Origin: a virus
Reading direction: 5' to 3' (one strand)
Virus record (IMG/VR): IMGVR_UViG_3300015373_000022
Location: 1 to 35,518 of that record
DNA length: 35,518 nt
Part shown: positions 2,848-32,342 of the stretch, piece after piece
Numbering within the stretch: the stretch's first letter is position 1
Layout of the letters: every line of letters starts with the position of its first letter
Translations under genes and position numbers: made by a program
The notes under the pieces: generated by a model
What the model was told of the DNA's origin: nothing
The model's database searches: none
Seen by the model: the letters and a program-made list of their open reading frames with translations, nothing else

Positions 2848-3250
2848 GAGTTCAGTTGATAAGATGCTGGCGGAATACGTTCCTCCTGCTGGATCAGCAG
2901 AGGAAGTTAAACTTACCGCAGCAGATTTTAAGACCAGTGATGACGCTCAGATTGCTTTCCTTGAGGAAAGAATTGATGAGGACGTTTTCGCTCAGGTCGT
3001 GAATAAGTACGGAAAGCCTTCTAACAGATCAGAAGTTTCCCGTGACCGACTTGACAGGTCTTATGAGCGCGATCTTCCAAAGTGGGCTTTTGATCCTCCC
3101 GAAGGAGCAGGTCTTACTGTTAAGGAACAGATCGCAGCACTTGAAGCCGAACAAAAGGAGGCAGAAGAAGCAGCAAAAGAAGAAACAGATACATCATCTA
3201 CAACTCCCCCTGGAAGTTCAACTTCTAGTTCCTCAACTAGCTCAAGCTAG
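2795..3250 (+). CDS. hypothetical protein with Ser/Thr-rich ends
   Basis: A 151-aa protein starting GTG at 2795 behind a good ribosome site (GGAGAGG about 7 bases upstream). Both ends are low-complexity Ser/Thr (MATTSTSTTSKSSTSTTESS at the start, a Ser/Thr run at the end). They flank a folded middle with acidic helices (KTSDDAQIAFLEERIDED) and a coiled-coil-like EAEQKEAEEAAKEE segment. The position between terminase and portal suggests a head-assembly or packaging accessory. I do not recognise the family. Confidence 0.7.
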   Translation: MATTSTSTTSKSSTSTTESSVDKMLAEYVPPAGSAEEVKLTAADFKTSDDAQIAFLEERIDEDVFAQVVNKYGKPSNRSEVSRDRLDRSYERDLPKWAFDPPEGAGLTVKEQIAALEAEQKEAEEAAKEETDTSSTTPPGSSTSSSSTSSS

Positions 3251-3256
3251 TTGAAC

Positions 3257-3314
3257 GGGGGATAAATAAACGCTGTCCGCCGCCCCGGTGACACTGTTCC
3301 CTCATTTATCCCCC
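3257..3314 (+). repeat. 11-bp perfect inverted repeat in an intergenic gap
   Basis: GGGGGATAAAT at 3257-3267 is exactly complementary to ATTTATCCCCC at 3304-3314, with a GC-rich 36-base loop. It fills the gap between the 151-aa gene and the 56-aa gene and ends 9 bases before the latter's ATG. No T-tract follows, so it is not a classic terminator. It could be a translational control stem, an RNA-processing site or a protein-binding site. Confidence 0.7.
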
Positions 3315-3494: not shown

Positions 3495-5661
3495 CGAATC
3501 ACTTATCAGCAAATGGGAACTGAAATTTAAAGCTTGTGCTCAACAACGGGTTAACTTTGAGAAGCAATGGCACGCTAATCTGGCTTTCTACTTCGGTAGA
3601 CAATGGATACAAGTACAAAACATTTCAGTCACTGGATCAAATGTCATTGGCTTTGCGATATCTGACCCACGACCTTCCGAAAGGTGGCGTGTTCGCCATG
3701 TATCCAATAAAATTAAGCGCATCATTCGAACCGAGATTACTAAACTAACTAAAGAAGAACCACAATTCTATACAGTTCCAGCTTCTACGGAGGAGAGTGA
3801 TCGTGCAGCTGCGTTGGCGGCTGATTCTATCTCTGATTTTCTTCTACACTCTCGTTATTTTAATATTACTAGAGGCCAAGCAACTTTTTGGGTAAGCGTC
3901 TGTGGCACCGGATACATTAAGACCTTCTATGATGAAACTAAGAAGGACGTAGACGGTAAACAGGGTAAGATCATTTACGAAGCTGTATCTCCATTCCATG
4001 TATTTGTTCCGTGGTTACAGGTTCAGGACATTGAAGATCAACCTTTCGTCTTTAACTGTAAGGCAGTAGATAAAGACATTGTTCAGGATTTCTACGGTAA
4101 ATCCCTAGAAGGTTCTAAGGATGTAGCTAAGGATATTCTAGAATCTCGTTTCCTGACTTCACTAGGTATCAAGACTGATCCCAGTAAGGAATTGAAACAG
4201 GCTTACGTTAAAGAAGTTTGGGTTAAGCCTTGTAAAGAATTCCCTAAGGGAGTGATGTTCGTTTACGCCGAGAACAAACTCCTGTACATGTATCAACCAA
4301 CTCCTGCTCCTATTGAGCAACCTACTTTAAATCCACAACCTCCTACTGTTACTCCACCTGTAGGGGGAGGAAATGAATATGCTATGGGGAATAATCCAGA
4401 TGCCGGAATGGGAATGGATTTATCCCAGCTTGGATTACAGAATCCAGAAGCATTCGGAATGCAATCTCCGGCACAAACAACGGAATATCCGTACCAACAT
4501 GGGGAATTCCCGTTTGCGAAGATCGATCATATCCCCGCTGGAAGATATTACGCTCAATCGACTATAGATGACTTAATGTCAATCCAGAAGGATTATAACC
4601 GAACTAGATCGGTTATGAAAGAGGCAGCTAATATTGCAGGGAAGCCTCAATGGTGGATGACCAAAGGTAGCTATGACGTAGCCAAACATACTTCCGAACC
4701 AGGGATTATCCTCCAAGTAAATCCCGGTATGGAAGGGCCGCAGCCGCTTCAGCAACCTGAGCTTCCTCAGCAAGTCAAAGACGAACTCGATATCGCTATT
4801 CGTGATATGGACGATATCTCTGGCCAGTTCGAAATTGCTAAGGGAAGAACCCCTCCCGGTGTTGAAGCGGCTTCGGCCATTGCTTATCTTCAAGAAGAAA
4901 ATGACACTATTCTCTATCACACTGTGGCTTCCATCGAAGCTGCTATCCAAAAGATTGGAATTCAATCTCTGTCTCTCGTCCATGAATTCTGGACAGAAGA
5001 TAGGGTTGTTAGAGCTACATCTCAAAACTCCTATTTCGAAGCCAGAATCTTTAAGGGAGCTGACCTTAATCCGTTCATGGATTTTAGGGTCGAATCTGAA
5101 TCAGTGGCTCCCAGATCAAAAGCTGCCAAACAAGCCTTCATAACTGAGTTGCTTAAGACAGGTGCATTGCCTATGGATAAGGCTATGCGCTACCTACAGA
5201 TGAATGAAACTAACAAACTCTATGAAGAAATGATGGTAGATTCTCGTCATGCTCAGCGTGAAAACTACATGATGAGTAAAGGACAACCACTCTACAAAGA
5301 TTCAACTGAGATGGACCCGAACGATCCTATGGGACAAAGGAGATTGCCTAGAACTGAGATTATGAAGGACGATCAAGGTAAAGAGATTGTTCAAAAGGGA
5401 CAACCTGTGATGCGTCCAGTAACAATTAATGACTTTGACAATCATCCAGTTCATGTTATGGAACATGAAAATTACATGAAATCTCAGGAATATGAATTGC
5501 TTTCTCCTGAAGTTCAACAGATTTTCTTGGATCACCTACAGGAACACAAGCAAGAGATTTATCAGGAGACAATGGCTCAGCAACAGCTAGGGCTACAACC
5601 TGAGGGTGGTCAAACTCCATCTTCTACGCAACAACAAGAAAGTGCTCCCGCAAGTGGATAA
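3481..5661 (+). CDS. portal protein
   Basis: The 726-aa dodecameric channel through which DNA enters and leaves the head. Supporting features are its position after TerL and before scaffold and capsid, its size (typical of podovirus portals), and the regions FGRQWIQVQ near the N-terminus, VSPFHVFVPW, and the long helical GRTPPGVEAASAIAYLQEEND segment. A Pro/Gln/Met-rich insert (about residues 272-345) and a Gln-rich C-terminus are low complexity. The start is GTG at 3481 with GAAGG six bases upstream. The last bases overlap the scaffold gene. Confidence 0.9.
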   Translation: MATADESLISKWELKFKACAQQRVNFEKQWHANLAFYFGRQWIQVQNISVTGSNVIGFAISDPRPSERWRVRHVSNKIKRIIRTEITKLTKEEPQFYTVPASTEESDRAAALAADSISDFLLHSRYFNITRGQATFWVSVCGTGYIKTFYDETKKDVDGKQGKIIYEAVSPFHVFVPWLQVQDIEDQPFVFNCKAVDKDIVQDFYGKSLEGSKDVAKDILESRFLTSLGIKTDPSKELKQAYVKEVWVKPCKEFPKGVMFVYAENKLLYMYQPTPAPIEQPTLNPQPPTVTPPVGGGNEYAMGNNPDAGMGMDLSQLGLQNPEAFGMQSPAQTTEYPYQHGEFPFAKIDHIPAGRYYAQSTIDDLMSIQKDYNRTRSVMKEAANIAGKPQWWMTKGSYDVAKHTSEPGIILQVNPGMEGPQPLQQPELPQQVKDELDIAIRDMDDISGQFEIAKGRTPPGVEAASAIAYLQEENDTILYHTVASIEAAIQKIGIQSLSLVHEFWTEDRVVRATSQNSYFEARIFKGADLNPFMDFRVESESVAPRSKAAKQAFITELLKTGALPMDKAMRYLQMNETNKLYEEMMVDSRHAQRENYMMSKGQPLYKDSTEMDPNDPMGQRRLPRTEIMKDDQGKEIVQKGQPVMRPVTINDFDNHPVHVMEHENYMKSQEYELLSPEVQQIFLDHLQEHKQEIYQETMAQQQLGLQPEGGQTPSSTQQQESAPASG

Positions 5662-8384: not shown

Positions 8385-9058
8385 CTCCCCTACAGGGGGT
8401 AGGTTTTTGCGGAGGATTTGTTTTTCTGATAGGTAGCAGCGTTTTATTAAGCCTGATCGGAAATACTGGTGAAGGTTCTGCATCTACACCCAGTACATTG
8501 GTTACAACAATTACAGTTGTTGAACCAATACCAGGTCCACCAGGACCAAAAGGAGAACAAGGTGAGCCAGGAGAACCAGGATTGGCCGGACCCAGAGGAA
8601 TTGCAGGAGAAAGAGGAGAAAGAGGCAAGCAAGGAAGACCAGGAAAAGCGGGGCAAAATGGCGTGGACGGCTCCATAGGTCCACAAGGTTTACCCGGAAT
8701 AAATGGAACTAATGGAACTGATGGTCTAAATGGAGAACAAGGACCACAAGGAATTCCAGGAAATATGGGGCCACAAGGTTTACCAGGTCCACGGGGTGAA
8801 CAAGGAGAAACTGGGAGAATTGGTCCCAGAGGAAAACAAGGTATTCCTGGTAAGCAAGGAAATGTTGGACCAGTTGGTCCAAGAGGCGAAACAGGTTCAA
8901 TTGGACCTATTGGACCCGAAGGACCGCAGGGAATTCCTGGACCTATTGGTCCAGCCGGGCCATTTTGTCCAACTGGATTCACACCAACGGTTATTGGAGT
9001 TCATGAGAGAGCACCCGACGACATAACTGTAAATGTTCTCGTCTGTTTAGAAGATTAA
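8381..9058 (+). CDS. membrane-anchored collagen-like protein
   Basis: A 225-aa protein with an N-terminal hydrophobic segment (about residues 7-27), a short Thr/Val linker, and uninterrupted Gly-X-Y repeats over about residues 51-194. Its C-terminal head of about 30 residues has two cysteines. Collagen-like repeats form rod-shaped trimers and are common in phage fibres. The membrane segment is unusual for a virion fibre: it could anchor the rod in a membrane, or the segment could be buried in the virion. The ATG overlaps the preceding TGA. A perfect CCCTACAGGG motif begins seven bases into the gene. Confidence 0.85.
   Translation: MTPLQGVGFCGGFVFLIGSSVLLSLIGNTGEGSASTPSTLVTTITVVEPIPGPPGPKGEQGEPGEPGLAGPRGIAGERGERGKQGRPGKAGQNGVDGSIGPQGLPGINGTNGTDGLNGEQGPQGIPGNMGPQGLPGPRGEQGETGRIGPRGKQGIPGKQGNVGPVGPRGETGSIGPIGPEGPQGIPGPIGPAGPFCPTGFTPTVIGVHERAPDDITVNVLVCLED
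8388..8397. repeat. dispersed motif, perfect copy (CCCTACAGGG)
   Basis: A perfect 10-mer inside the first codons of the collagen-like gene, read as CCC CTA CAG GGG. It is extended on both sides to CCCC...GGGG. One of seven perfect copies in the window. Confidence 0.75.
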
Positions 9059-23197: not shown

Positions 23198-23331
23198 TGC
23201 CTGGCGTTGATATGAGTTCGATTAAGAACCCTAAAGCCTATGAAGCCCTAAAGAAAAAGGGCATGTCCAAGATGCAAGCCGCCAAAATTTCTAACAGTTT
23301 GATGAAGAAAATTTACAACCTTAAGAATTGA
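23197..23331 (+). CDS. 44-aa protein of the KNPxxYEALKKKGMSKxxAAxISN family
   Basis: This short gene starts at ATG 23197, overlapping the stop of the giant gene (TAATG), and ends at TGA 23329-23331. The core KNPKAYEALKKKGMSKMQAAKISN is a pattern I recognise from small actinobacterial and phage proteins of unknown function, sometimes annotated as DUF7218 or Rho-termination-like. It is the last gene of the + strand block and overlaps the convergent - strand gene by 11 bases. The small helical basic fold suggests nucleic-acid binding, but this is not shown. Confidence 0.75.
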   Translation: MPGVDMSSIKNPKAYEALKKKGMSKMQAAKISNSLMKKIYNLKN

Positions 23332-23611
23332 AACTATACTGTGTTTCAATAGGCCAACCTAAGATATGATATAAGTGGTTCTTCCTATCAGATAGACTCA
23401 TGATAGATAACATATAACCACAAATCTGAATAGCCTTAGCATCCCGTTCTTCAATAGCCTTACGCAGACACCATAGAATATCTACATCTTCAACTTCTCT
23501 AAGTCTGAGAAGCTCACGTAGTACTCCACCTTCCTCTTGTTTGTTATCCTCCCAATAAGTTTTTATCCGCTTCCCATCAGGACTCTTGGCTTCTGATCTC
23601 GAAATTGCCAT
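23321..23611 (-). CDS. hypothetical protein at the end of the right block
   Basis: A 96-aa charged, helical protein (ATG at 23611; a GTG at 23620 would add three residues). AGGGAG lies about ten bases upstream. The N-terminus is basic and polar (AISRSEAKSPDGKRIKTYWED). The middle is a Leu/Arg/Glu helix (GGVLRELLRLREVEDVD), followed by a second helix with a Cys pair seven residues apart. The start overlaps the end of the HNH-fold gene by 35 bases, so the two are probably co-expressed. I do not recognise the family. Confidence 0.6.
   Translation of the reverse strand: MAISRSEAKSPDGKRIKTYWEDNKQEEGGVLRELLRLREVEDVDILWCLRKAIEERDAKAIQICGYMLSIMSLSDRKNHLYHILGWPIETQYSFNS
23327..23350. terminator. inverted repeat at the convergent gene junction, possible weak bidirectional terminator
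   Basis: ATTGAAAC (23327-23334) pairs with GTTTCAAT (23343-23350) around an 8-base loop, exactly where the two blocks converge. It is AT-rich, so only a weak terminator. No better candidate lies nearby. Confidence 0.4.
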
Positions 23612-23846
23612 GAGTACCACACTCCCTACATATTAGGTTATCCAGGGGGATTCCCGCTCTTAAACCTAGGAACAGATTTTCGATAGAGCAATCTGTCCTA
23701 TCACCGTTTCGATAACCGACGGTTACATACTTTGGTAGAGGATGACCAAGATGTTCTTCCATCACCGCTCTAGCTTTTAATACAACTTTGCCGTCTTTGT
23801 TGTAGACGTATTCGTAGCCGCTTCCGCTTCTCAAGGAGCCTCCCAT
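23577..23846 (-). CDS. HNH-fold protein lacking the catalytic histidines
   Basis: An 89-aa protein that follows the common phage HNH pattern (AVMEEHLGxPL, then a turn, NGDRTDCSIENLFL). Where active members have HRxVMEEHLG and VVHHxNGD, this one has KARAVMEEHLG and VTVGYRNGD, so both key His positions are gone while the scaffold and the ENL ending remain. A single CxxC (CREC) follows. ATG at 23846 shares one base with the TTG of the divergent WhiB gene. The frame stays open upstream to ATG 23987, but that would lie antisense to the WhiB cysteines. It may be a DNA-binding regulator derived from a nuclease. Confidence 0.6.
   Translation of the reverse strand: MGGSLRSGSGYEYVYNKDGKVVLKARAVMEEHLGHPLPKYVTVGYRNGDRTDCSIENLFLGLRAGIPLDNLICRECGTHGNFEIRSQES
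23833..23838 (+). promoter_or_regulatory. ribosome-binding site that decides the WhiB TTG start
   Basis: AAGGAG lies seven bases upstream of TTG 23846. No ATG or GTG follows at a better distance before the first conserved Cys, so TTG is the start. Confidence 0.75.
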
Positions 23847-24253
23847 TGAAGAATGAATGGGTGGATTTAAGAAATTGTCGTACCGCAGATTTAGGGTTAT
23901 TCTTTTCTCTATACGAGGATGAACAGAAACTAGCAAAGAAGATTTGTAAAGGTTGTCCTGTGAAGGAACCTTGCTTAGAGTACGCATTGAAATCAGGGGA
24001 GTTTGGTATATGGGGTGGGACTAACGATAGAGAACGGAATCGTCTTAGGATTAAGCGATATCAGGAGCAGATAGGTTTGGTTGTGCATGTAACTGTTTCA
24101 CAGCATAGTAATATATGTGTGCCAGAGCATCCCACTTATGCATCCCCTTCTTCCCTTTCCGGTATTTCTTTCCCAACCACCCATACCCCACCGGCTTTAC
24201 CGAAGCTGGCTGGAGTACGATTTCCTTCCCAAGCTGTGAACAAAGCGTCCTGA
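23846..24253 (+). CDS. whiB: WhiB-family iron-sulfur transcription regulator
   Basis: A 135-aa protein with the WhiB signature: Cys11, Cys34, Cys37 and Cys43 (CKGCPVKEPCLEYAL) as ligands for a [4Fe-4S] cluster, then GIWGG at 54-58 and a basic RERNRLRIKR helix. WhiB proteins are confined to Actinobacteria and their phages; they bind the primary sigma factor and modulate transcription. It is the only + strand gene in the right block. The start is TTG with AAGGAG. The last ~68 codons are antisense to the RuvC-like gene and read as low-complexity Pro/Ser, so the functional part is probably residues 1-75. Confidence 0.88.
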   Translation: MKNEWVDLRNCRTADLGLFFSLYEDEQKLAKKICKGCPVKEPCLEYALKSGEFGIWGGTNDRERNRLRIKRYQEQIGLVVHVTVSQHSNICVPEHPTYASPSSLSGISFPTTHTPPALPKLAGVRFPSQAVNKAS

Positions 24254-24494
24254 TAGCTCCGATCATTTGCGGAGCTATCATATCGTCGTAGTCAAAAGCT
24301 CCTGATCTTGCGAAGCGAGGATCAATTAGGAAGTTCTCTACTATGATGATATCAGCTTCCTGTAGGAGAGGTTGTAACTCCAGTCCAGTGGTATCTTTGG
24401 ATTCCCCAAAGTTAGTTGGATGAATAACGTTATCTTCTAGTTCAGCAGTAGCCCATCCAGTTGTACCTCCTGGATCAATTCCCAGTAGGTGCAT
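24051..24494 (-). CDS. RuvC-like Holliday-junction resolvase
   Basis: A 147-aa RNase H-fold nuclease beginning MHLLGIDPGGTTGWA. The acidic residues expected at the active site are Asp7 (strand 1), Glu53 (IIVEN) and Asp122 (HKWDALAH). It would resolve branched DNA during replication or packaging. ATG at 24494 has GGAG eight bases upstream, and the conserved fold starts here. The frame stays open to 24566, but that extension lacks a ribosome site and overlaps another small gene. Codons 81-147 are antisense to WhiB. Confidence 0.85.
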   Translation of the reverse strand: MHLLGIDPGGTTGWATAELEDNVIHPTNFGESKDTTGLELQPLLQEADIIIVENFLIDPRFARSGAFDYDDMIAPQMIGAIRTLCSQLGKEIVLQPASVKPVGYGWLGKKYRKGKKGMHKWDALAHIYYYAVKQLHAQPNLSAPDIA

Positions 24495-24817: not shown

Positions 24818-25035
24818 CTTCCTTTATCTTCCTCATACACTCCCATATGTTCTCTAACTTCTGCTAGCTCTTGAGTGATATCCTCATCATCTCCCCAATC
24901 CTCTAGTAGGAGTTCGGCAAGACGAAAAGTTATGGGGCTGAACCTCACTTGAGCACAGTGAATAGCTGCATTTGAATTATCCAGGTGGTAATTCTGGAGA
25001 AAACACCACTGCAAAATAGTAAAATATTTGTTCAT
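24814..25035 (-). CDS. hypothetical protein after the DNA polymerase
   Basis: A 73-aa protein with ATG at 25035 overlapping the polymerase stop (ATGA). The N-terminal half is aromatic and uncharged (YFTILQWCFLQNYHL). The C-terminal half is acidic and helical (LAELLLEDWGDDEDITQELAEV). It is tightly coupled to the polymerase and to the following gene, so it is probably made in similar amounts. No family recognised. Confidence 0.6.
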   Translation of the reverse strand: MNKYFTILQWCFLQNYHLDNSNAAIHCAQVRFSPITFRLAELLLEDWGDDEDITQELAEVREHMGVYEEDKGR

Positions 25036-26711
25036 TGGGCAAGTAGCTTTCGATCGGTTGTGAACTTTAGATCAAAGATTTCTGTAGTCCAATCTTCCAT
25101 GAGTTTTTGAATTTCTATTACCTCAGATTCTCCATCAACGTTGACCCAGATAGAATCGTGAACTTGGTTTGAGATGCAAGCCCCTCCTCCTCTAGCTTTA
25201 AGCATAGCTCGTTTAACAATTTCGAAAGCCCCTCCCTGGACGACGGCGTTAAAGGCTTTTCTGTGCTCAGAACTATATTGAAAATGTCGTTTTCGTCCGT
25301 TCCACATAGCAATCTCACCATACTCATTTGCGTATTCCTCCGCTTCGATCACCTTGTTGAACAACATAGGATAAGCTGAACGATAGTCCATATGGATTTG
25401 TTCAGCCTTCTTAGAGTTAGTTCCAAGTGACTTTGCTAGGGTATTAACTCCAGCTCCATATCCCATAGCATAATTAACAGTCTTGGCGTTGAACCTTGAT
25501 ATACCAAGGTCATTCGCAACCATTTGATGAAAGTCACCTTCGTTTCTAAAGATTTCGAGAAGTTTGGGTTCTTGGCAATAGACGGCCATGAGGCGGTATT
25601 CAATTGTTCGGAAGTCAATCTCCCATAATTGCTTTCCAGGCTCCGGTCTAAAGACGTCTTTAACATTCGATCCCTTGTATTCTTCTCGTGGTATCTGCTG
25701 CAAGTTGGGCAGCTCTCCGCTCAGCCGGCCTGTCACCGTCCCATGCTGCTTGAAATTTGTGTGGAGTCGGGGATAAGCCCTGCTAGTGAGCCTGAGATAA
25801 GCCGAGAAATAGCTTGACTTTTGCTTGCCCAATTTCCTATACTCATAGACGAGGGCCGTGACCGGGTGCCCTACACTTTGTAAATATTCTGAGGATACTT
25901 GCGGTTTACCTTTTGGAGTACGTGATGGAACATCTAAACCTAGTCCCCAAGGTGGAGAACCAAAAAGTTTGGAATGTAATTGATCGGGTTTGGCAGGATC
26001 GAATTTCAGAGCCTCAAGAATCTGACTCATACGGTCAGCGCATTGCTGCTCCAAAGACTCGCAAAGTTCGCGGTCGATTGGAAGCCCCAGTTCCATAATC
26101 TCTACTAACAACAACATGAAGTCTCGATCGAATTCAACCCATTGATCTATCCAATCCTTCTCCATATACTGCATCAATATGTGATACAAGTCTCTAGTTA
26201 GGAATGCATCTGTCTCCGCATACGTTGCCATTACATACGGAGGCACTTTGTCCCAGCTAGAGTGCATAGCCTTAGAGAGTTTGGTTTTCTTTTCATCTTT
26301 AAGATAACGGAGAGCTAAGCTCTCTAGGCTATGTCCCTCTCCGCTTCCCATTACATTCTCATTGATAAAGTGGGACATTAACATAGTGTCCCAGATATCC
26401 CCTGTAGGGATCGTTACGCCCAATTTACTGAGCACCATCAAATCGAATGCTGCGTTATGGAAAATGATCGGTCCCTTGAAGGACTCGAAAAGATCAGGTG
26501 GCACTTTAAAATTGGCGTGCTCATGTCCGAACCAAGGCCGATGGTCTACAGGTATGTAATAGTGATTCTTATCTGTAGCGAAAGATACACCAAGGCAATA
26601 CCTATTTTTATATAGATCAGTAAAGTTAGTCTCCGTGTCTATGGCTAAAACCTGGCTGGCTTGGATTTCCTCCCGTAGGTTGTTTACTTGATCCTGGCTG
26701 TCCACCAACAT
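25032..26711 (-). CDS. polA: DNA polymerase I family (family A) with 3'-5' exonuclease
   Basis: A 559-aa phage replicase. The exonuclease has Asp25/Glu27 (IDTET), Asp90 (NAAFD) and Tyr164/Asp168 (YAETD). The polymerase has TGRLSG and PNLQQIP, motif A DFRTIEYR (Asp366, Glu371), an O-helix with Arg406, Lys410, Tyr414, Tyr418 and Gly419, and motif C VHDS (Asp519). Tyr414 matches E. coli Phe762, a change common in virulent phages. Motif C has Ser where HDE is usual. There is no 5'-3' exonuclease domain. ATG at 26711 has AAAGGG six bases upstream; TTG at 26717 is an alternative. A CCCTGTAGGG motif lies in the gene. Confidence 0.95.
   Translation of the reverse strand: MLVDSQDQVNNLREEIQASQVLAIDTETNFTDLYKNRYCLGVSFATDKNHYYIPVDHRPWFGHEHANFKVPPDLFESFKGPIIFHNAAFDLMVLSKLGVTIPTGDIWDTMLMSHFINENVMGSGEGHSLESLALRYLKDEKKTKLSKAMHSSWDKVPPYVMATYAETDAFLTRDLYHILMQYMEKDWIDQWVEFDRDFMLLLVEIMELGLPIDRELCESLEQQCADRMSQILEALKFDPAKPDQLHSKLFGSPPWGLGLDVPSRTPKGKPQVSSEYLQSVGHPVTALVYEYRKLGKQKSSYFSAYLRLTSRAYPRLHTNFKQHGTVTGRLSGELPNLQQIPREEYKGSNVKDVFRPEPGKQLWEIDFRTIEYRLMAVYCQEPKLLEIFRNEGDFHQMVANDLGISRFNAKTVNYAMGYGAGVNTLAKSLGTNSKKAEQIHMDYRSAYPMLFNKVIEAEEYANEYGEIAMWNGRKRHFQYSSEHRKAFNAVVQGGAFEIVKRAMLKARGGGACISNQVHDSIWVNVDGESEVIEIQKLMEDWTTEIFDLKFTTDRKLLAQ
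26400..26409. repeat. dispersed motif, perfect copy (CCCTGTAGGG)
   Basis: Inside the polymerase exonuclease region, flanked as ATCCCC...GGGAT. On the gene strand it is read as CCT ACA GGG (Pro-Thr-Gly). Confidence 0.75.
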
Positions 26712-28275
26712 CTTCAACCCTTTCGTAATTCAAATGCTCGTTTCGTCGGACGTAGAACTTGTCCTTCGGTCCGAAACGAGTCTTAATAGCAGATAGTTCG
26801 AGACGCTTACCCTCATCCCATAAGCAGAGAACAGTCTCAACAACTCTGGCAAAGTGAAAGCTTCCATATAGATCACTGAGCTTGTTGGGTTTTTTGTTAC
26901 CCTCAGTGGCTTTCCTGTTGTGGTGAATAGCAACAACTGCACAATTATATCGTCGTTGAATCTTACGTATCCACCGCATAACTCTCTTAGCTTGATCGTT
27001 GGCATTGTCTCCTTCTTCTAGTAGCTCTGATAGAGAATCTATAATCACCACGTTAGGCTGATGTTTAAAGATTAGATTTTCATACCCAATCAGTTCTCCA
27101 CTTTCGTCGATTACTTGTACCTTTGTTCTGTCTAGGTTCTCTGGCCACTCCTTTGACTGGAAATCCAATACGTATTTGATTTGGCGAACTTCCATCTCTA
27201 GAGATAAAATCAATACGGAGATATCCTTGACTTCGGATATCTTCTTCCCTAAAAATTCTTGCCTCGCGGTAAGGTCCACTGCGAATTGTAAAGCAAGCTG
27301 AGTTTTCCCAACGCCGGGTGCTCCTGTTAAAATTAGAAACCCGCTTGTATGGAGCCACCCTGGTACTATCCAATCTATCTTCTCAGTATGATCTAGAATG
27401 TGTTGAAGGTTGTAGACGATGATTTCGTCTTCAGAGTTTACTTTGATAAGGGCGTATTCAGCTAATGAAGATAGTCTCTCAAACTGGTCAGTTCGACCTT
27501 GAAATTTACCTACCCGATCATCTACATGATGAAGCAAGGAAAATATTTCCGCGTGGTTTAATCCTTCCTCAGCAAGTTCAAGCGCGATTTTTGCTAGGAA
27601 AGAGCTACGAGCACCTTGCTCTACAGTTTCGTCTCGAATCCGCTTCTTCAGAGATAATGGCAGAGCAAGTATCAATTTCCCTACAGGGAGAAGGTCTGCC
27701 TGTTTTAACTCAGCTTGTGGAGCAATTAAAGCAGGGGCAGCGTCGAACAAACCCAGTGACGATACCCCTCGTGAGAAATGAGAAAGACTTACCGGAAGCG
27801 GACTCTGATACTTGTGATTCAAAGTCCCCGGTGGACGAAGTAACTGAGTCGCATCCCACCCAGAAGAATCAGCCCGAAGATAAACAGTCAGTCTCCGGTT
27901 CAAATCCTCTAGAGTTTGGACGTTAACTTCCTCTATTTCCCAATAGCTGTGGAGATGGGTTGAGGTAGAAGTTTGGACAATGGCCGATGGATTAGGAACT
28001 TCTCGGAAATCAATCTGAGTGTCACCATCGAATTCAACCCACGCAACCTTCGAACACTTAACCGCGCTCTTAACGGCCCGTCGTTCTTTGTAAAGAACTG
28101 GAGAGAGGTAAACGTCAGAGTCTATAGAACGCGTCGTTATCCAGTCGTGGAGTTCAACCTTTTCATCTGGCCAATTGAAGAACTTTTGATCCCAAACATC
28201 CCCTTTAGCTGGCGAGTATACAATTCCCTGGAGATTTCCAAAAAGTAAGTTGGTGAATTTCTCTAGATCGTTCAC
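26626..28275 (-). CDS. primase-helicase fusion (AEP/RepB-type primase plus RecA-fold ATPase)
   Basis: A 549-aa protein. The N-terminal part carries the motifs of archaeo-eukaryotic-type primases: WVEFDGD (Glu81, Asp83, Asp85), a HLHSYW motif near 107-112, and LRPPGTLNHKY near 146-156. The C-terminal part is a RecA/DnaB-like ATPase with Walker A GAPGVGKT at 318-325, Walker B VVIIDS at 409-414 and an AIHHNR sensor loop near 449-454. It would prime and unwind at the fork with the polymerase encoded next. The start is GTG with no ribosome site, eight bases after a 14-bp hairpin. The last 86 bases overlap polA. Confidence 0.85.
   Translation of the reverse strand: MNDLEKFTNLLFGNLQGIVYSPAKGDVWDQKFFNWPDEKVELHDWITTRSIDSDVYLSPVLYKERRAVKSAVKCSKVAWVEFDGDTQIDFREVPNPSAIVQTSTSTHLHSYWEIEEVNVQTLEDLNRRLTVYLRADSSGWDATQLLRPPGTLNHKYQSPLPVSLSHFSRGVSSLGLFDAAPALIAPQAELKQADLLPVGKLILALPLSLKKRIRDETVEQGARSSFLAKIALELAEEGLNHAEIFSLLHHVDDRVGKFQGRTDQFERLSSLAEYALIKVNSEDEIIVYNLQHILDHTEKIDWIVPGWLHTSGFLILTGAPGVGKTQLALQFAVDLTARQEFLGKKISEVKDISVLILSLEMEVRQIKYVLDFQSKEWPENLDRTKVQVIDESGELIGYENLIFKHQPNVVIIDSLSELLEEGDNANDQAKRVMRWIRKIQRRYNCAVVAIHHNRKATEGNKKPNKLSDLYGSFHFARVVETVLCLWDEGKRLELSAIKTRFGPKDKFYVRRNEHLNYERVEDVGGQPGSSKQPTGGNPSQPGFSHRHGD
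27679..27688. repeat. dispersed motif, perfect copy (CCCTACAGGG)
   Basis: In the primase-helicase gene; read on the gene strand as CCT GTA GGG (Pro-Val-Gly). Flanked symmetrically as TCCC...GGGA. Confidence 0.75.
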
Positions 28276-31018: not shown

Positions 31019-31069
31019 GGGGGTTTGGGACTAGGAAAGAAGATGACTAGAAACTAGTCCCAAACCCCC
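31019..31069 (-). repeat. 16-bp perfect inverted repeat after the acidic-tailed gene
   Basis: GGGGGTTTGGGACTAG (31019-31034) pairs exactly with CTAGTCCCAAACCCCC (31054-31069) around a 19-base loop. It lies 12 bases beyond the stop of the strongly promoted 257-aa gene. This is a strong stem with no T-tract. A terminator without T-tract or a 3'-end stabiliser is likely. Confidence 0.8.
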
Positions 31070-31982: not shown

Positions 31983-32342
31983 TTAGAAATACTTTACAGT
32001 TTTTTGGGCTACCCCTTTTCCTGTCCTTGCATCTGCCCGTTTATGATCCGATGGACAACGCCATACAACATTCTCTACTTCGTTGTTAGCATAGTCCTTA
32101 GATAAGTGGTCAGCCTGTAATCCATACGCAGAATTCTTATCATTACGCAGTACACGATTAGTCTCAGGCCAAATTTCCTCAAACCATTTCGGAGCGTCTT
32201 TCGGAGGCTCGATGTTTGTCTTTCCACAATCAATGCACTCGAATTGTACGTATGCTAGAAATAGTGACTTCCTAGCTTTACGCCTTCCTGTGCTTCTCCA
32301 ATCTACTATGCCTGATTCATCCTTCAAGACGTTCACCCTCAT
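31983..32342 (-). CDS. HNH endonuclease
   Basis: A 119-aa HNH nuclease. CIDCG (Cys36, Cys39) and Cys96 can bind structural zinc. The catalytic segment is ADHLSKDYANNEVENVVW (His79, Asn91) ending RCPSDH (His100). Unlike the degenerate HNH-fold protein near 23,600, all key residues are present. It could be a homing endonuclease or a packaging-associated HNH; the position in the early block, away from TerL, favours the former. ATG at 32342 overlaps the preceding gene by 26 bases. Confidence 0.8.
   Translation of the reverse strand: MRVNVLKDESGIVDWRSTGRRKARKSLFLAYVQFECIDCGKTNIEPPKDAPKWFEEIWPETNRVLRNDKNSAYGLQADHLSKDYANNEVENVVWRCPSDHKRADARTGKGVAQKTVKYF

What the first reader, a model, noticed from the sequence alone, without database searches (positions are those of the whole stretch)
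23577..24253. WhiB regulator divergent from a nuclease-dead HNH protein, sharing a start base
TTG of WhiB and ATG of the HNH-fold gene share base 23846. The HNH protein keeps the family scaffold but has lost both catalytic His positions. Two candidate DNA-binding or transcription proteins expressed back to back look like a regulatory switch. It is a candidate for the reader of the dispersed motif, though this link is a guess.
Basis: partly seen in the sequence, partly recalled or inferred. Interest (0 to 1): 0.6.

Follow-up and report, generated by a model that had tools for sequence, protein, structure and literature searches.

The report
Phage WhiB, dead HNH, antisense overlap
An uncultured phage carries a WhiB-type regulator gene beside a small gene whose DNA-cutting site has been lost; the pairing itself is a variable slot rather than a switch, but the WhiB gene runs backwards into a neighbouring DNA-repair gene and keeps a long reading frame open there in all 19 related phage contigs examined, so two proteins appear to be encoded on opposite strands of the same DNA.

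Summary
Both genes are real. WhiB (23846-24253,+; Pfam E 8e-18) keeps four Cys and GIWGG. The HNH_3-like protein (-; E 1e-6) has lost its catalytic pair: aligned to I-HmuI, D74->Gly, H75->Tyr, and the 'HR' His->Ala; N87 is kept. The 'shared start base' is probably an artefact: HNH most likely starts at TTG 23834 (SD GGGAGG), where the nearest relative has ATG, leaving 11 bp between starts.

So the HNH is a patchy, probably homing-derived gene; the dead form is under purifying selection (dN/dS 0.22). The dispersed motif is CCTACAGG; phages lacking the HNH have it too, so the HNH is not its necessary reader.

Unexpected result: WhiB's last 66 sense codons are antisense to ruvC. All 19 clade members keep that frame open for 62-145 codons (0 stops in 1,887 codons, against 71 in 925 in the rest of ruvC; 1 of 61 control genes reaches 60); in four contigs all of ruvC lies antisense inside the WhiB ORF. 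This looks like a conserved overprinted WhiB tail. Nothing was tested experimentally; the host is unknown.

The parts
23846..24253 (+). WhiB-like (Wbl) gene, TTG start, 135 aa
   Evidence: Pfam Whib E 7.8e-18, 65 bits against cut-off 23.6; start supported by AAGGAG 7 nt upstream and ATG at the same place in L002
23846..24049 (+). Wbl domain (residues 1-68: W5, C11, C34, C37, C43, GIWGG 54-58): the part of the ORF outside ruvC
   Evidence: invariant columns; nearest solved structures are WhiB entries 8dy7/8dy9; dN/dS 0.16 against L020
24051..24253 (+). WhiB C-terminal tail, antisense to the 3' part of the RuvC-like gene
   Evidence: open in all 19 relatives; residues 81-135 predicted disordered
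23577..23834 (-). HNH_3-like protein without its catalytic pair, 85 aa from TTG 23834
   Evidence: Pfam HNH_3 E 1.1e-6, above cut-off; aligned to I-HmuI; AlphaFold core pLDDT about 90; dN/dS 0.22
23833..23838 (+). Shine-Dalgarno AAGGAG of WhiB (spacing 7)
   Evidence: sequence
23839..23844 (-). Shine-Dalgarno GGGAGG of the HNH gene (spacing 4 to TTG 23834)
   Evidence: sequence; the relative has GGGAG 7 nt before its ATG
24051..24494 (-). RuvC-like (Holliday junction resolvase family) gene, overlapped by the WhiB tail
   Evidence: PHROG 1770 Holliday junction resolvase E 1.4e-4, phrog_1981 E 3.9e-6; 89% identical in L020
23321..23611 (-). small conserved gene of unknown function, overlapping the HNH 3' end by about 35 nt
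   Evidence: overlap kept in L020 (8984-9250 against HNH 8764-9015); dN/dS 0.09

Best explanation
The locus is a conserved phage module in which ruvC and whiB converge, with a variable gene slot opposite whiB. (1) WhiB is a genuine Wbl protein. By the mechanism known for its family (inferred here) it binds an actinobacterial host's primary sigma factor and redirects host transcription. Its gene lies on the strand of the late genes, antisense to the end of the early DNA-metabolism genes. (2) In this clade the WhiB stop codon has moved into ruvC. At least about 60 extra codons, and the whole of ruvC in one subclade, are read antisense to ruvC, and the frame is kept open by selection (shown statistically). 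What the tail does is unknown: most likely a disordered extension, or a coupling of the two genes through antisense transcription. (3) The HNH gene descends from a free-standing HNH (homing-type) nuclease that entered the slot. In this lineage it lost the general base and one metal ligand but is kept as a small folded protein, most likely a non-cutting DNA-binding accessory made with the early genes together with gene 23321-23611 (inferred). The near-shared start is compaction, not a dedicated switch.
For: WhiB: Pfam and PHROG hits and motifs. Overlap: 19 of 19 loci open in the same phase, P(open by chance) from below 0.001 to 0.086 each given the RuvC protein and codon usage; 0 stops in 1,887 overlap codons against 71 in 925 codons of the ruvC 5' part; in that antisense phase 1 of 61 other genes has a run of 60 codons or more; one origin on the RuvC tree, support 83/73; raised synonymous conservation in several pairs; excess tail identity z = 6.0 in the WhiB frame against 2.8 and 3.3 in the other antisense frames. 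HNH: catalytic states HH (intact), IH, SH, TW, IY, GY at one syntenic place; patchy presence, including sister pair L047 (has it) and L048 (lacks it); dN/dS 0.22 in the dead form.
Against: For the window's own pair (WIN/L043) the overlap shows no extra synonymous conservation (35/55 against 40/69 same codon, p = 0.58), and L054/L055 go the other way (not significant). The tail is predicted disordered and its amino-acid sequence is only weakly conserved. The antisense stretch starts from WhiB and ends at the first stop, so the run is defined by being open; the chance models address this but ignore codon-pair context, and the lineages are not fully independent. No expression data, no isolate and no known host. 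DNA binding by the HNH scaffold is inferred only.
Confidence: 0.6

Rival explanations
1. One reading: WhiB and the dead HNH form a divergent two-protein regulatory switch around a shared start, and one of them reads the dispersed motif.
For: The divergent pair is found in WIN, L043, L047, L017, L051 and L064-66. Both ancestral folds can contact DNA or transcription machinery. Start-to-start distance is 11-12 bp in the two closest phages.
Against: The HNH is absent or replaced in many relatives that keep WhiB; spacing varies from 11 to 561 bp; the HNH ATG at 23846 is probably not used; no motif site lies in the interval and phages without a detected HNH keep the motif.
Confidence: 0.07
2. The HNH gene is a decaying homing endonuclease on its way out, with no function left.
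For: Patchy presence, intact relatives and stepwise loss of catalytic residues fit the gain-decay-loss cycle of homing endonucleases; phage homing endonuclease genes are often found next to essential genes (PMC10448857).
Against: dN/dS 0.22 and 66-67% amino-acid identity between the window and L020 although both are dead; frame, fold core, Cys pair and a 35-nt overlap with the next gene are kept. Part of the constraint at the 3' end comes from that overlap.
Confidence: 0.22
3. The protein still cuts DNA, with other residues replacing the lost pair.
For: Asn equivalent to I-HmuI N87 is kept; L046, L017 and L051 keep the general-base His (VIH, VSH).
Against: In the window and L020 the general base is Tyr and the metal ligand Gly; no compensating His is visible at those columns in the 85-aa protein.
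Confidence: 0.07
4. The open WhiB tail is incidental: the Wbl domain is what matters and the frame simply happens to lack stops over ruvC.
For: RuvC's amino-acid sequence itself favours few stops there (P = 0.086 for the window alone); the tail is disordered and poorly conserved.
Against: 19 of 19 loci in about ten lineages with near-saturated synonymous sites; this phase has the highest antisense stop density (7.5%) in these genomes.
Confidence: 0.12

Closest known systems
Phage-borne WhiB-like (Wbl) proteins, e.g. WhiBTM4 of mycobacteriophage TM4 (PMC8612146, PMC6282962)
   Same: Wbl domain with four Cys and G[VI]WGG on a phage genome
   Different: Divergent gene, on a podovirus-like contig (nearest annotated relative ctEqG8 is filed as Podoviridae); long C-terminal tail encoded antisense to ruvC; host unknown
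I-HmuI and HNH_3 (PF13392) homing-type nucleases
   Same: Fold signature, N87 ligand position, sequence profile match
   Different: D74 and H75 equivalents replaced by Gly and Tyr; only 85 aa, so nothing like the rest of the 174-aa I-HmuI chain
WhiA-WhiB of Streptomyces and Corynebacterium (PMC6282962)
   Same: A WhiB protein paired with a protein derived from a dead homing endonuclease; nearest solved structures to the phage WhiB are entries named WhiB, 8dy7/8dy9
   Different: WhiA has a LAGLIDADG domain plus HTH and binds GACAC; here HNH, no HTH found, and the pairing is not constant among relatives
Antisense overlapping genes in prokaryotes and phages (PMC7457138, PMC9927249, PMC7017920)
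   Same: Two protein-coding frames on opposite strands
   Different: Here one partner is a recognisable regulator extended over a recognisable recombination gene, kept across about ten divergent phage lineages

Membership tests
WhiB-like (Wbl) family | four invariant Cys (C-x22-C-x2-C-x5-C here) | tested here: met
   C11, C34, C37, C43 invariant
WhiB-like (Wbl) family | G[V/I]WGG turn | tested here: met
   GIWGG at residues 54-58
WhiB-like (Wbl) family | profile score over curated cut-off | tested here: met
   65.2 against 23.6 bits
WhiB-like (Wbl) family | [4Fe-4S] cluster and sigma-A binding | not testable with these tools
   needs purified protein
HNH_3 nuclease | profile score over curated cut-off | tested here: met
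   28.6 against 24.8 bits
HNH_3 nuclease | general-base His and D/H metal ligand | tested here: not met
   Tyr41 and Gly40 at the I-HmuI H75/D74 columns
HNH_3 nuclease | second metal-ligand Asn (N87 of I-HmuI) | tested here: met
   N53, invariant
HNH_3 nuclease | beta-beta-alpha metal fold | tested here: inconclusive
   model pLDDT 79.8; best HNH match I-HmuI 1u3e, prob 0.33, E 1.7
Homing endonuclease gene | patchy presence at one site among relatives | tested here: met
   L047 has it and sister L048 lacks it; L064 has it and L062 lacks it
Homing endonuclease gene | cleaves the HNH-less allele | not testable with these tools
   needs a cleavage assay
WhiA | LAGLIDADG domain plus HTH | tested here: not met
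   Pfam finds HNH_3 only
Antisense overlapping gene pair | overlapping frame kept open beyond chance in relatives | tested here: met
Antisense overlapping gene pair | purifying selection on the second frame | tested here: inconclusive
   clear in the L045/L052 and L044/L048 pairs, absent in WIN/L043, not significant in L054/L055; overall excess tail identity z = 6.0
Antisense overlapping gene pair | translation of both frames | not testable with these tools
   needs ribosome profiling or mass spectrometry

The most novel reading that the evidence does not exclude
The phage has independently built a WhiA-WhiB-like regulator: a dead HNH homing nuclease supplies site-specific DNA binding and a WhiB protein, with a tail overprinted on ruvC, supplies sigma-factor contact, so that one small block ties recombination, DNA recognition and host transcription takeover together.
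Probability: 0.1. Interest if true: 0.8.

Novelty: new variant of a known kind. Interest (0 to 1): 0.52.

Why it matters
A long antisense overlap between two recognisable protein families, kept open across about ten divergent phage lineages and covering a whole gene in one subclade, would be one of the better-supported natural cases of two proteins encoded on both strands of the same DNA, and it comes with an internal control (the non-overlapped half of ruvC). Gene callers can lose one partner: in MW202795.1 ruvC is not annotated. The HNH series (intact, half-decayed, dead but constrained, absent) at one place is a compact example of a homing nuclease being lost or put to other use.

Tried and rejected
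DNA-level search of named phages: no match. Single-protein or narrow scans found few relatives of the HNH and of RuvC; a diverse RuvC alignment found 80 loci. Fold comparison of the HNH model gave no significant hit, I-HmuI at E 1.7. No Rfam family or tRNA in the window. Promoter and terminator scans gave no excess of promoter-like sites and 5 terminator-like sites against 3.5 +/- 1.8 expected. A shared ATG/TTG start was rejected after comparison with L002. The HNH as necessary reader of the dispersed motif was rejected because phages without it keep the motif.

Full report
What the window is. G000 is a 35,518-base virus record. Genes 49-23331 lie mostly on the + strand (terminase-like, capsid-like, collagen-like proteins) and the DNA-metabolism genes on the - strand (polymerase A 25032-26717, helicase/RecA-like, exonuclease-like) (functions other than those searched are read from the translations). 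The closest annotated relative by polymerase is MW202795.1, Podoviridae sp. ctEqG8 from Manatee Spring, 44% identity. The host is unknown; presence of a Wbl gene suggests an actinobacterium (Wbl proteins are found only in Actinobacteria and, by other work, their phages; PMC6282962, PMC8612146).

Checking the observation. The WhiB ORF passes Pfam's cut-off with all four Cys and GIWGG, and the - strand ORF passes HNH_3's cut-off. Base 23846 does belong to both an ATG (-) and a TTG (+). But in the closest relative, L002/L020 (IMGVR_UViG_3300050498_000056; RuvC 89%, polymerase 88%), the HNH starts at an ATG that aligns with TTG 23834 of the window, and the ATG aligned with 23846 is out of frame and stops after four codons. 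TTG 23834 also has a GGGAGG 4 nt upstream, while ATG 23846 has none. WhiB's TTG 23846 has AAGGAG 7 nt upstream and matches an ATG in the relative. The best reading is two divergent starts 11 bp apart whose Shine-Dalgarno sequences interleave (AAGGAGCCTCCC on + is GGGAGGCTCCTT on -).

Loss of catalytic residues. A profile of seven relatives aligns to I-HmuI (1u3e) at E 0.007. I-HmuI's 'VVDHKDGNKDNN..TNL' puts D74 and H75 opposite the window's Gly and Tyr, and N87 opposite the retained Asn; the His of 'VHRLV' is Ala. (That D74, H75 and N87 are catalytic in I-HmuI is from established knowledge of that enzyme, not tested here.) At the same syntenic place the pair is HH in L064-66 (intact), IH in L046, SH in L017 and L051, TW in L049, IY in L047 and GY in the window and L043. 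The dead form is not decaying freely: dN/dS between window and L020 is 0.22. The model has a confident core (residues 11-60, pLDDT about 90), but fold search does not significantly match solved HNH proteins, so the fold rests on sequence profiles.

The pair among relatives. RuvC-based scanning gave 80 loci. WhiB downstream of and convergent with ruvC is the constant element; the gene divergent from WhiB is not. HNH is present in WIN, L043, L047, L017, L051 and L064-66, and farther away in L046 and L049. Whole-record searches find no HNH of this family in the records behind L044, L045, L050, L055, L057, L059, L062, L067 and others, all of which have WhiB; some of these records are fragments. 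In L044 and L050 another ORF sits in the slot, and in L048, sister of L047, a 187-nt gap without an HNH remains. Start-to-start spacing ranges from 11 to 561 bp. A second, distant set of phages has HNH_3-scaffold proteins without the catalytic pair and with charged, coiled-coil-like C-termini just upstream of ruvC (L085, L087, L109, L121 and others). Dead HNH scaffolds thus recur, but the WhiB-HNH pairing is not a conserved unit.

The antisense overlap. Only the first 68 WhiB residues lie outside ruvC; the rest is antisense to ruvC's 3' part. The same holds in all 19 loci of one group on the RuvC tree (one change; support 83/73), while outgroups such as L057, L068, L073 and L110 have convergent but non-overlapping genes. 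The phase is identical everywhere. Redrawing ruvC codons from each genome's usage while keeping the protein gives P(open) from below 0.001 to 0.086 per locus, 0.086 for the window itself. In the same antisense phase 61 other long genes have a stop every 13 codons, a median open run of 8 codons from their 3' end, and one run of 60 or more. Within ruvC itself there are 0 stops in 1,887 overlap codons and 71 in 925 codons beyond the WhiB stop. The run is bounded by the first stop by definition, so it is the lengths (62-145 codons, 19 of 19) that carry the weight. In L045, L046, L049 and L052 the WhiB frame runs through the entire ruvC gene.

Selection on the tail. In this phase ruvC's wobble base is WhiB's second codon base, so ruvC-silent changes alter the WhiB tail. 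Same-codon use at shared amino acids is higher in the overlap than in polymerase for L045/L052 (107/127 against 319/474, p = 1.6e-4) and L045/L046 (p = 0.002), and higher than in the rest of ruvC for L044/L048 (33/48 against 13/51, p = 2e-5). It is not raised in WIN/L043 (p = 0.58), and L054/L055 point the other way without significance (p = 0.18). These pairs were examined individually and the p values are not corrected for the number of pairs. Across ten lineages tail identity exceeds codon-redraw expectation by z = 6.0 in the WhiB frame, against 2.8 and 3.3 in the other antisense frames, and 2.6 in the WhiB frame over the non-overlapped part. The open frame is well supported; sequence-level constraint is real in some lineages and weak in others. 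The tail is predicted disordered.

The dispersed motif. None lies in 23577-24253. CTACAG is enriched in whole records with and without the HNH: 53 against 1 for the reversed control word in the window, 33 against 8 in G002, 65 against 9 in G003, 91 against 19 in G005, 70 against 0 in G008, 41 against 5 in G010; it is not enriched in G016-G018, which lack WhiB, nor in G013, which has it. The motif changes form between lineages (TTACAGG in L051, CTACAGC in L062-66). The HNH is therefore not needed for the motif; WhiB, RuvC or any clade-wide protein remains possible, and descent confounds the correlation.

Mechanism. WhiB's role is inferred from its family: several Wbl proteins bind the primary sigma factor, and WhiBTM4 of phage TM4 down-regulates host whiB2 (PMC6282962, PMC8612146). 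The HNH most likely persists as a non-cutting DNA-binding protein in an operon with 23321-23611. A parallel worth testing is Streptomyces WhiA, a dead homing endonuclease domain plus HTH that works with WhiB (PMC6282962); here the HTH is missing and the pairing is not constant, so this is a lead, not a membership. Antisense overlaps were listed by annotation in 21 of 347 Podoviridae reference genomes (PMC7017920), so overlap as such is not unprecedented; two recognisable families kept overlapping this way I did not find in the papers searched, which is not an exhaustive search.

Limits. One metagenomic record, one close relative, no isolate, no expression data; chance models ignore codon-pair context; lineages share ancestry.

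Noticed in passing
window, 20 sites of CCTACAGG, e.g. 484, 2164, 4357, 8389, 15877, 23034, 24359, 27680, 32718, 34489: Dispersed near-palindromic word CC(C)TACAGG(G), both orientations, mostly inside genes, about 20 times over expectation; enriched clade-wide with lineage-specific variants (TTACAGG, CTACAGC).
   Followed up: partly
L045 4999-5646, L046 4990-5643, L049 463-1116, L052 4999-5646: Whole ruvC gene lies antisense inside the WhiB ORF; in L045, L049 and L052 the WhiB stop overlaps or abuts the ruvC start codon.
   Followed up: yes
L017 (MW202795.1) 4071-4517: ruvC is missing from the GenBank annotation, where the overlapping WhiB is called instead; a second WhiB gene lies at 2937-3287 on the other strand.
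   Followed up: partly
L085 4350-4688, L087 1644-2030, L109 4524-4838, L121 4501-4839: Distant phages have HNH_3-scaffold proteins without the catalytic His pair and with a charged, coiled-coil-like C-terminus, directly upstream of ruvC.
   Followed up: partly
window 31019-31069: Perfect 16-bp inverted repeat GGGGGTTTGGGACTAG / CTAGTCCCAAACCCCC with a 19-nt loop between early genes; possibly a terminator.
   Followed up: no
window 31983-32342 (-): A second putative HNH-like protein (weak PHROG hits, E 0.006) with zinc-finger-like Cys and 'ADHL' and 'SDHK' motifs, near other early genes.
   Followed up: no
L044 from 5647 (+), L050 from 5716 (+): An unrelated ORF (KOW-like by eye, not tested) occupies the slot where other relatives have the HNH gene.
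   Followed up: no
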